Below are positions 60,477-63,527 of a stretch of DNA of 64,000 nucleotides, piece by piece (the first letter of the stretch is position 1; every line of letters begins with the position of its first letter). The translations under genes and the position numbers were made by a program. Source of the DNA: an uncultured Treponema sp. (lineage in GTDB: Bacteria; Spirochaetota; Spirochaetia; Treponematales; Treponemataceae); the NCBI GenBank assembly GCA_946615905.1, contig CAMOIE010000005.1, positions 62,001 to 126,000 on the forward strand, written 5' to 3'. A model generated the notes under the pieces. The model was given only the letters and a program-made list of their open reading frames with translations. It did no database searches and had not been told where the DNA came from.

Positions 60477-60493
60477 AAAAGTAGGAGGTGCGT

Positions 60494-60763
60494 ATGCTTC
60501 ACAATTTTATGGAATTGCCTGACCAAACAATAATCAGTTATTACGACATCGATAACGGCTCCGTCAAAGTTTATATGGAAACCCCGGATGAAAAATACGG
60601 ATTCAAGCATGCCACCTGTTTTTTGCCAGCCGAAAATTGGACAGACATTGTTGGCTACACCGAAGCAGAATTAGATTATTTAAAAGAACTCGTGGAATCG
60701 GAAAAGCACATGATTTTAGAATTTGCTCAGAATGGGGGCTTGGACGATGCCTCAAATTTTTAA
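60494..60763 (+). CDS. Small acidic partner of DUF4160 protein
   Basis: 89 residues, soluble, acidic (YDIDNGSVKVYMETPDEKYG; EAELDYLKELVESEKHMILE). Start ATG 60494 has SD AGGAGG 5 nt upstream; GTG 60488 is inside the SD. It overlaps the DUF4160 gene by 17 nt. Proteins of this kind are often beside DUF4160, and the layout resembles a toxin-antitoxin pair, but neither activity is shown here. Confidence 0.75.
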   Translation: MLHNFMELPDQTIISYYDIDNGSVKVYMETPDEKYGFKHATCFLPAENWTDIVGYTEAELDYLKELVESEKHMILEFAQNGGLDDASNF

Positions 60764-61025
60764 GCTAGGCTCGTATTGGGTCTACTTTTGGACAAATGAA
60801 GGAGAGCCAAAAGAGCCTGTCCATGTCCACATTTCAAAAGGAAAGCCTGTTCCAAATGGAACAAAAGTTTGGATTACAAAAAGCGGAAAGTGTTCTCTTG
60901 CTAACAACAATTCAAAAATTCCAGAGCAGGATTTAAACAAATTACTTCGCTTGATAGAGCCGCGAGCTTTTGAGATTACACGAAAGTGGCTTGAAATATT
61001 CGGACAGATTTCATTCTACTGTTGA
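60747..61025 (+). CDS. DUF4160 protein
   Basis: 92 residues. Family features: MPQIFKLGSYWVYFWTNE, EPVHVHISKGKP (HxH motif), then NGTKVWITKSGKCSLANNNS and IPEQDLNKLLRLI. The HVH motif is the family's most conserved part and may bind metal or act in catalysis. ATG 60747 aligns with the family start; the longer frame does not. Confidence 0.85.
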   Translation: MPQIFKLGSYWVYFWTNEGEPKEPVHVHISKGKPVPNGTKVWITKSGKCSLANNNSKIPEQDLNKLLRLIEPRAFEITRKWLEIFGQISFYC

Positions 61026-62436: not shown

Positions 62437-62482
62437 TTTATTGAAAAATTCACAATCATGTGCTAGTTTTTATTCGTGCGGA

Positions 62483-62528
62483 GGGTTCAATACACAGCCC
62501 CATGGGGCGTAAAGAGGGTATTGAACCC
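62483..62528. repeat. Nested palindrome 1 upstream of the DUF3791-DUF3990 cassette
   Basis: GGGTTCAATAC (62483-62493) pairs exactly with GTATTGAACCC (62518-62528). The loop contains the 12-bp perfect palindrome GCCCCATGGGGC (62497-62508). Non-coding. It can fold as a two-part hairpin in RNA or a cruciform in DNA. Confidence 0.85.
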
Positions 62529-62547
62529 GACTGCGATTCCAATTATG

Positions 62548-62589
62548 AATCAGCATTCCCCGTGGGTTTGCCCCCGGGGAATGCTGATT
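62548..62589. repeat. Strong hairpin 2, ending at the SD of the DUF3791 gene
   Basis: AATCAGCATTCCCCG (62548-62562) pairs perfectly with CGGGGAATGCTGATT (62575-62589), with GGG-CCC extending the stem around a TTTG loop. It ends one base before GAGG (62590-62593), the probable SD of ATG 62601. It could be a terminator of upstream transcripts, an attenuator or an operator; there is no T tract right after it, which weighs against a plain terminator. Confidence 0.85.
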
Positions 62590-62600
62590 GAGGCTTAAAG

Positions 62601-62825
62601 ATGCAGACTGTACCGATAAAGGACAAAATTGAATATACCGTCTCTCTTGTCAGTGAGTTCGCAAAAAAACACTCGCTGACCACTACGCAGGCGTTCAATT
62701 ATCTTGACCGTTTTAAGGCTATCTCATTCATCGACCGCCAGTATAACATAGCCCATACGCTCTCTTTTGACGAGATGACCGAGAATATCGCATTGTACTG
62801 CAAAAAGAATGGAGGCCAGCTTTAA
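62601..62825 (+). CDS. DUF3791 protein, probable antitoxin-like partner
   Basis: 74 residues, helical (DKIEYTVSLVSEFAKKHSLT; QAFNYLDRFKAISFIDRQYN; HTLSFDEMTENIALYC), which fits DUF3791. The stop shares bases with the next start (TAATG), so translation is coupled. The small size, order and neighbour suggest it controls the DUF3990 protein. Confidence 0.8.
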   Translation: MQTVPIKDKIEYTVSLVSEFAKKHSLTTTQAFNYLDRFKAISFIDRQYNIAHTLSFDEMTENIALYCKKNGGQL

Positions 62826-63316
62826 TGTTTCTTTATCATGGGTCAAATGTAGAGATAAAAAAAGTCGATTTGAATCTTTCCAAACCGAACAAGGATTTTG
62901 GAAGAGGATTTTATCTTTCGGATAACTTTGAACAGGCAAGCGAAATGGCTTCTTTCAAGGCAGAACTTTTAGGTGGCGCGCCATTTGTTACAAAGTTTTA
63001 TTTTGATGAAAAACGATTTTCAGACAAAACGTTGAATGTATTGAGATTTTCAGAATATTCAAAAGAATGGGCGGAATTCGTTTTTAAAAATCGTAGTCAG
63101 GAAAATCAACTTTTCACCCATGAATATGACATTGTGACAGGACCAATCGCAAACGACCGCGTTGGAGTCCAAATCCGTCGTTTGATGGAAGGCGACATCG
63201 ATTTCGATACTTTCATCGAGAAACTAAAATTCATGAAAGGCGTAACATTTCAATTTTTTTTCGGAACGCAAAAAGCCGTTGATTTGCTTGAAAACAAGGG
63301 GCTGTGCGATGAATGA
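62825..63316 (+). CDS. DUF3990 protein, ADP-ribosyltransferase-like fold, probable toxin
   Basis: 163 residues. Starts FLYHGSNVEIKKVDL and has FGRGFYLSDNFEQASEMASF, features of DUF3990, a family grouped with ADP-ribosyltransferases (His in YHGS, Tyr in GFYLS would bind NAD). A third catalytic residue, often Glu, could lie in the later part (ENQLFTHEYDIVTGPIANDR), but is not certain. Overlaps the next gene by 8 nt. In this setting it is a candidate NAD-dependent toxin. Confidence 0.82.
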   Translation: MFLYHGSNVEIKKVDLNLSKPNKDFGRGFYLSDNFEQASEMASFKAELLGGAPFVTKFYFDEKRFSDKTLNVLRFSEYSKEWAEFVFKNRSQENQLFTHEYDIVTGPIANDRVGVQIRRLMEGDIDFDTFIEKLKFMKGVTFQFFFGTQKAVDLLENKGLCDE

Positions 63317-63527
63317 TGTGGAATATCAAATTGAATGCACGACCCGCGACCTTGCGACGTATCTTGTGGCGGACTTTTCCTTTGACATGGAAAACGCCTT
63401 GCGGACTGTCTACAATTCGGAAACCTTCAAGAAACTGACCAATCCCAAAACAGGCCTTTACTTTCAAAGTCCACTGTATGTTTATGACTATTTGAAGGCT
63501 GAAATTAAAACTGGGAAATTTCTCTGA
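63309..63527 (+). CDS. Third gene of the DUF3990 cassette, helical protein
   Basis: 72 residues (EYQIECTTRDLATYLVADFS; LYFQSPLYVYDYLKAEIKTG). It has the length and helical make-up of the DUF3791 protein but little clear identity with it. Start ATG 63309 lies inside the DUF3990 gene. A second regulator or chaperone of the enzyme is the most likely role; not shown. Confidence 0.72.
   Translation: MNDVEYQIECTTRDLATYLVADFSFDMENALRTVYNSETFKKLTNPKTGLYFQSPLYVYDYLKAEIKTGKFL

What the first reader, a model, noticed from the sequence alone, without database searches (positions are those of the whole stretch)
62483..62589. Two perfect hairpins packed before a toxin-like operon
The second stem (15 bp plus 3) ends one base before the SD, and the first holds a second palindrome in its loop. 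The pair could act as an attenuator, an operator for the DUF3791 protein, or mobile repetitive palindromes. Their position on the leader of the cassette makes RNA-level control attractive, as in type III systems.
Basis: seen in the sequence. Interest (0 to 1): 0.6.

Follow-up and report, generated by a model that had tools for sequence, protein, structure and literature searches.

The report
Spirochaete miniature mobile hairpin element
The two hairpins are one copy of a roughly 115-base non-coding mobile element that is scattered through treponeme genomes and landed by chance just before a toxin-like operon, so they are not a built-in control region of that operon; what moves the element is unknown.

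Summary
The hairpins are real (z = -5.1 against shuffles), but they belong to a larger unit. Window 62475-62589 is one copy of a two-hairpin, non-coding mobile element. The own genome has about ten dispersed copies. A consensus matches 137 of 294 genomes of the order (46 of 83 genera), with 44 matches in one complete genome. The ends are sharp. Orthologous empty sites show the rule: a 6-base target, TTTATT, stays on the left; nothing is duplicated or lost; the element itself ends in TTGATT. This is the arrangement of IS200/IS605 single-strand "peel-and-paste" insertion. Both stems are kept by compensatory changes. A one-hairpin mini form (about 47 nt) has the same ends.

The other copies checked lie beside unrelated genes. 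The closest homologues of the DUF3791/DUF3990 operon (72% DNA identity) lack the element, so attenuator, operator or type III readings are not supported.

Open point: genomes with many copies often carry no Y1 or RAYT transposase, presence of the two does not correlate over 294 genomes, and no autonomous version was found. The mobilising enzyme is unknown. The element may still alter the operon's 5' leader incidentally.

The parts
62469..62474 (+). target hexamer TTTATT, host DNA kept at the left side of the element
   Evidence: 110 of 138 extracted copies have TTTATT here; orthologous empty sites of other copies keep exactly this hexamer
62475..62589 (+). the mobile element copy (115 nt), CGTGCGG...GCTGATT
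   Evidence: repeat in own genome; boundary profile of 207 left and 144 right ends
62483..62528 (+). hairpin A (11-bp stem, with a nested palindrome 62497-62508)
   Evidence: compensatory changes in 40 copies
62548..62589 (+). hairpin B (15+3 bp stem); its 3' arm runs into the right end of the element
62584..62589 (+). right-end hexamer CTGATT (family consensus TTGATT), part of the element
   Evidence: 111 copies end in TTGATT; right ends in empty-site comparison
62590..62593 (+). GAGG, likely Shine-Dalgarno of the downstream gene, first host bases after the element
   Evidence: sequence; the homologous leaders in L284/L285 also have GAGG at this place
62601..62825 (+). DUF3791 protein (74 aa), first gene of the neighbouring operon; not part of the element
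   Evidence: PF12668 E 1.5e-21; PADLOC candidate PDC-M13A
62825..63316 (+). DUF3990 protein (163 aa), ADP-ribosyltransferase-like; not part of the element
   Evidence: PF13151 E 6.2e-45; PDC-M13B
63309..63527 (+). third small protein (72 aa) of the operon; not part of the element
   Evidence: PADLOC PDC-M13C E 1.5e-18

Best explanation
Window 62475-62589 is a copy of a non-autonomous, non-coding miniature mobile element, widespread in the treponeme order, that inserted 3' of a TTTATT in the short leader of the DUF3791/DUF3990 operon. Shown: it is a dispersed repeat with sharp ends; the hairpins are kept by compensatory changes; at orthologous empty sites of other copies the 6-nt target is kept only on the left, with no duplication and no loss, while the element's own right end is a near copy of the target (TTGATT). 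Inferred: it moves as single-stranded DNA by an HUH (Y1-type) transposase that reads the folded hairpins and joins the right end behind the target, as in IS200/IS605 and REP elements; the enzyme acts in trans and is not identified. Its place in front of this operon is accidental. As a by-product the operon's mRNA, if made from a promoter upstream of the element, would carry two stable hairpins next to its ribosome-binding site.
For: Own genome: about ten dispersed copies, 73-88% identical to the window copy, up to 98% among themselves. Order: 137 of 294 genomes, 46 of 83 genera. Complete genomes G219 and G059 returned 44 and 27 matches; G048 returned 33, several 97-99% identical to one query. 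Boundary profile: conservation drops from about 1.6-2 bits to about 0.1 bit outside TTATT at the left and TTGATT at the right. Empty sites for five copies, one of them a mini: left flank + TTTATT (or TTGATT) + right flank. No target-site duplication. 17 of 26 predicted pairs have compensatory changes in 40 diverse copies. Homologous operons lack the element; genes beside the other own-genome copies are unrelated. The published model of IS200/IS605 and REP ends (subterminal hairpin, target flanking the left end, equivalent final bases at the right end) is in PMC6006769.
Against: No Y1 transposase was found in many genomes rich in copies. Presence of the element and of Y1_Tnp is unrelated over 294 genomes: Fisher odds ratio 1.1, p = 0.73; for stronger element matches (E <= 1e-10) 0.52, p = 0.02, in the wrong direction. 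No copy with a gene between its ends was seen. The replication-strand bias expected of single-strand transposition is weak (41:27, p = 0.11). A clear guide-target covariation was not seen. The window copy itself has no orthologous empty site in hand.
Confidence: 0.75

Rival explanations
1. Same mobile element, but moved by site-specific recombination of a double-stranded or folded circle at a TTNATT core (tyrosine or serine recombinase, or integron-integrase-like), not by an HUH enzyme.
For: One core in the empty site and a core-like hexamer at both ends of the filled site also fit a crossover inside the core. No Y1 enzyme is linked to the element.
Against: By inspection there are no inverted recombinase arms around the joined ends and none at the targets; copies are scattered over the chromosome, unlike a cassette array; subterminal hairpins kept by covariation fit single-strand recognition.
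Confidence: 0.15
2. A family of structured regulatory RNAs or RNA terminators present in many copies, one of which serves the toxin-like operon.
For: Conserved stems with compensatory changes; some left flanks end in terminator-like hairpins (28% with energy below -8 kcal/mol against 14% in shuffles).
Against: No Rfam family matches; sharp insertion boundaries with empty orthologous sites; no consistent gene neighbourhood; the homologous operons lack it. An insertion inside a coding sequence (L106) is hard to reconcile with a required RNA.
Confidence: 0.05
3. A dedicated attenuator, operator or type-III-like antitoxin RNA of the DUF3791/DUF3990 operon.
For: Position directly before the ribosome-binding site.
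Against: The two closest operons (72% DNA identity over the operon) have no such sequence and have an AT-rich, TATAAT-like stretch close upstream of GAGG...ATG. Other copies have no linked cassette. Type III antitoxins are tandem repeats before an endoRNase toxin (established knowledge); here the toxin candidate is ADP-ribosyltransferase-like with small protein partners.
Confidence: 0.04

Closest known systems
IS200/IS605 family insertion sequences and their non-autonomous derivatives (PATE/MITE; free-standing IS605 stem-loops in Borrelia plasmids, PMC2775950)
   Same: Subterminal hairpins, no terminal inverted repeats, no target duplication, short T-rich target kept at the left, right end resembling the target.
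   Different: No tnpA or tnpB between such ends, and no autonomous copy with these ends found; the target is a hexamer TTTATT; presence does not track Y1_Tnp.
REP elements / REPINs with RAYT (TnpA-REP) transposases
   Same: Short, mostly intergenic palindromes in tens of copies, single- and double-hairpin forms; the mini form lies in the size range given for REPs (21-65 nt).
   Different: REPs are described as species-specific (PMC6006769), whereas many copies of this element keep about 85-90% identity to one consensus across genera. High-copy genomes have no RAYT. The RAYT loci seen carry other palindromes (GGTGCCAGGCACC type).
Integron attC cassettes
   Same: Folded single-strand site; toxin-antitoxin genes nearby.
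   Different: No array, no RYYYAAC/GTTRRRY boxes in the canonical order (inspection), copies dispersed.
Type III toxin-antitoxin RNA leader
   Same: Structured RNA before a toxin-like operon.
   Different: No tandem RNA repeats; the element is absent from homologous operons.

Membership tests
IS200/IS605-derived non-autonomous element | subterminal hairpins at both ends, no terminal inverted repeats | tested here: met
IS200/IS605-derived non-autonomous element | insertion 3' of a short fixed target, kept only at the left, no duplication | tested here: met
   empty sites of five copies; no duplication
IS200/IS605-derived non-autonomous element | ends shared with an autonomous element carrying tnpA | tested here: not met
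   no such copy in about 250 loci; Y1 loci examined lack the ends
IS200/IS605-derived non-autonomous element | guide bases 5' of the hairpin pair with the target | tested here: inconclusive
   AATA before the inner stem could pair with TATT, but variants do not covary cleanly
IS200/IS605-derived non-autonomous element | orientation bias to the lagging-strand template | tested here: inconclusive
   41:27, p = 0.11, origin inferred from sparse GC-skew samples
REP / REPIN of a RAYT | cognate RAYT gene in the genome, flanked by the palindrome | tested here: not met
   none in G219, G281, G059, G208, G173, G078, G093; one RAYT next to a copy (L139) has another palindrome upstream
REP / REPIN of a RAYT | GTAG/GGAG or CGTC tag at the hairpin foot | not tested
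   not screened systematically; the conserved foot contains CGTGCGGAGGG and AATA
Type III toxin-antitoxin | RNA antitoxin of tandem repeats conserved upstream of the toxin gene | tested here: not met
   closest homologous operons lack it
Known RNA family (Rfam 15) | match to a covariance model | tested here: not met
   no credible match to the element

The most novel reading that the evidence does not exclude
An order-wide spirochaete mobile palindrome, with a full two-hairpin and a mini one-hairpin form, that uses IS200/IS605-like insertion rules but is served by a host-encoded transposase outside the known Y1/RAYT families.
Probability: 0.3. Interest if true: 0.6.

Novelty: new variant of a known kind. 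Interest (0 to 1): 0.42.

Why it matters
It shows that the hairpins before this toxin-like operon are mobile DNA, not operon regulation, and it defines a well-bounded element with a clear insertion rule in a large, medically and ecologically relevant order. Unlike REP elements it keeps one sequence across many genera, yet it has no evident transposase, so its spread poses a concrete question: which enzyme moves it. The open-site polymorphisms between close species make that testable.

Tried and rejected
Flanking inverted repeats as a target feature: two striking cases (L209, L108), but the mean is the same as shuffled pairs. Target-site duplication: none. Long forms of about 370 nt as possible autonomous versions: assembly gaps (runs of N) in two metagenome assemblies. 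Left ends without a right end (L214, L218): ordinary genes or truncated copies, no transposase recognised. Y1/RAYT loci as source: their flanks do not carry the element's ends. Recurrent neighbour genes over about 200 loci: no transposase-like family recognised by eye among the recurrent families. Phage, plasmid and viral collections: no match. Empty sites for own-genome copies in genus relatives: relatives too diverged in intergenic DNA. Simple promoter and terminator scan around the window copy: nothing found.

Full report
Observation. Stem 1 is 62483-62493 / 62518-62528 with a nested palindrome; stem 2 is 62548-62566 / 62571-62589 with one mismatch; the second ends just before GAGG and the DUF3791 start codon at 62601. 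The leader folds far better than shuffled sequence (z = -5.1).

It is a dispersed repeat. A search of the own genome with the leader gave the window copy and about nine further places on other contigs or far away on the same contig. The alignment shows that the unit is larger than the reported span: it begins at TTTATTCGTGCGGAGGG and ends at ...TTGATT, and contains both hairpins in a fixed order. The window holds one copy. Genes beside other copies encode a nitroreductase, a NifU-like protein, an EPSP-synthase family enzyme, cyclophilin/FKBP, TrkA and an AMP-binding enzyme, with a tRNA beside another; none is a toxin cassette.

It is spread through the order. A consensus of 120 nt matches 137 of 294 genomes of the order in 46 of 83 genera, often at 85-90% identity. 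Complete genomes G219 and G059 return 44 and 27 matches, some of them partial or overlapping. G048 returns 33, several 97-99% identical to one query, which suggests recent spread. Phage, plasmid and viral collections gave no match. Rfam has no such family.

Forms. Besides the full form (about 115 nt, two hairpins) there is a mini form of about 47 nt with the same ends around a single hairpin. Apparent 370-nt forms are assembly gaps.

Ends and target. Over 207 left and 144 right ends conservation stops abruptly: TTATT at the left, TTGATT at the right, random beyond. Of 138 extracted copies with flanks, 110 start with TTTATT and 111 end in TTGATT; there is no target-site duplication. Using joined flanks of copies in G059, I found orthologous sites without the element in related genomes. 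For L073, L108 and L102 the empty sites read left flank + TTTATT + right flank; for the mini copy L128 the same, with a less certain alignment; for L106, which interrupts a coding sequence of a multi-copy family, related genes read TTGATT, CTGATT or TTAATT at that place. One further copy (L104) gave an ambiguous alignment in which the flanks overlap. So the hexamer at the left is target DNA, and the element proper runs from CGTG to TTGATT. In the window this gives target 62469-62474 and element 62475-62589, and a predicted ancestral leader ...TAGTTTTTATT|GAGGCTTAAAGATG.

Structure under constraint. In 40 diverse copies the two hairpins are recovered, and 17 of 26 pairs have compensatory changes. 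This fits recognition of folded strands, as RNA or as single-stranded DNA; the calculation alone does not tell which.

Mechanism. Insertion 3' of a short target kept on one side, a right end that resembles the target, subterminal hairpins, no duplication: this is the arrangement described for IS200/IS605 and REP elements (PMC6006769). I infer single-strand transposition by an HUH-type enzyme in trans. This step is inferred, not shown. Against it, no Y1_Tnp or RAYT was found in several complete genomes with many copies, presence of Y1_Tnp and of the element is unrelated over 294 genomes, and no autonomous version was seen. A strand bias is only suggestive (41:27, p = 0.11; my tally, with the origin placed). 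One RAYT gene lies next to a copy in L139, but carries another palindrome upstream, and the element there sits behind the gene's terminator. The enzyme may have been lost, may be carried by few strains, or may belong to a family that these models miss.

The neighbouring operon. The three genes are DUF3791, DUF3990 (ADP-ribosyltransferase-like) and a small third protein; PADLOC lists them as candidate defence set PDC-M13. The two closest operons, in G001 and G009, align at 72% DNA identity over the operon and have no element; there a TATAAT-like stretch lies close upstream of GAGG...ATG. The hairpins are therefore not an ancestral part of the operon. Whether the insertion alters expression is untested: it separates the start region from whatever lies upstream by 115 nt and puts a stable stem next to the ribosome-binding site.

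Novelty. The library searches found no paper on such an element in Treponema; RepRanger covers some spirochaetes but does not mention Treponema; free-standing IS605 stem-loops are described for Borrelia plasmids (PMC2775950). Most subscription papers are not in the library, so an earlier description cannot be excluded. I file it as a new variant of a known kind: a non-autonomous palindromic mobile element with IS200/IS605-like insertion rules, wide sequence conservation, and no known enzyme.

Noticed in passing
window 62601-63527: Three-gene DUF3791 / DUF3990 / small-protein operon that matches PADLOC candidate defence set PDC-M13A/B/C; homologues of the DUF3990 protein occur in 23 of 59 relatives searched.
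   Followed up: partly
window 60488-61022: Small unassigned protein overlapping a DUF4160 protein (PF13711), an arrangement that resembles a toxin-antitoxin pair.
   Followed up: no
L043, L343 (genome G048) and L139 1791-2633: RAYT-type transposase genes flanked by their own palindromes (GGTGCCAGGCACC or GGTGACTGTCACC type), distinct from the element studied here.
   Followed up: partly
L106 (genome G059), element at 1501-1622: The element interrupts a coding sequence whose product looks like a PD-(D/E)XK family protein of a multi-copy family; uninterrupted relatives exist in the same and related genomes.
   Followed up: partly
genomes G056, G136, G190, G199, G246 (same order, other family): Very high numbers of Y1_Tnp first-look candidates per genome (34 to about 100), without a matching abundance of strong copies of this element.
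   Followed up: no
L131 2052-2114: A palindrome made of two inverted left-end-like sequences of the element (AATTCGTGCGGAGAGGTTCATACCC...), near but outside an IS200-like gene.
   Followed up: no
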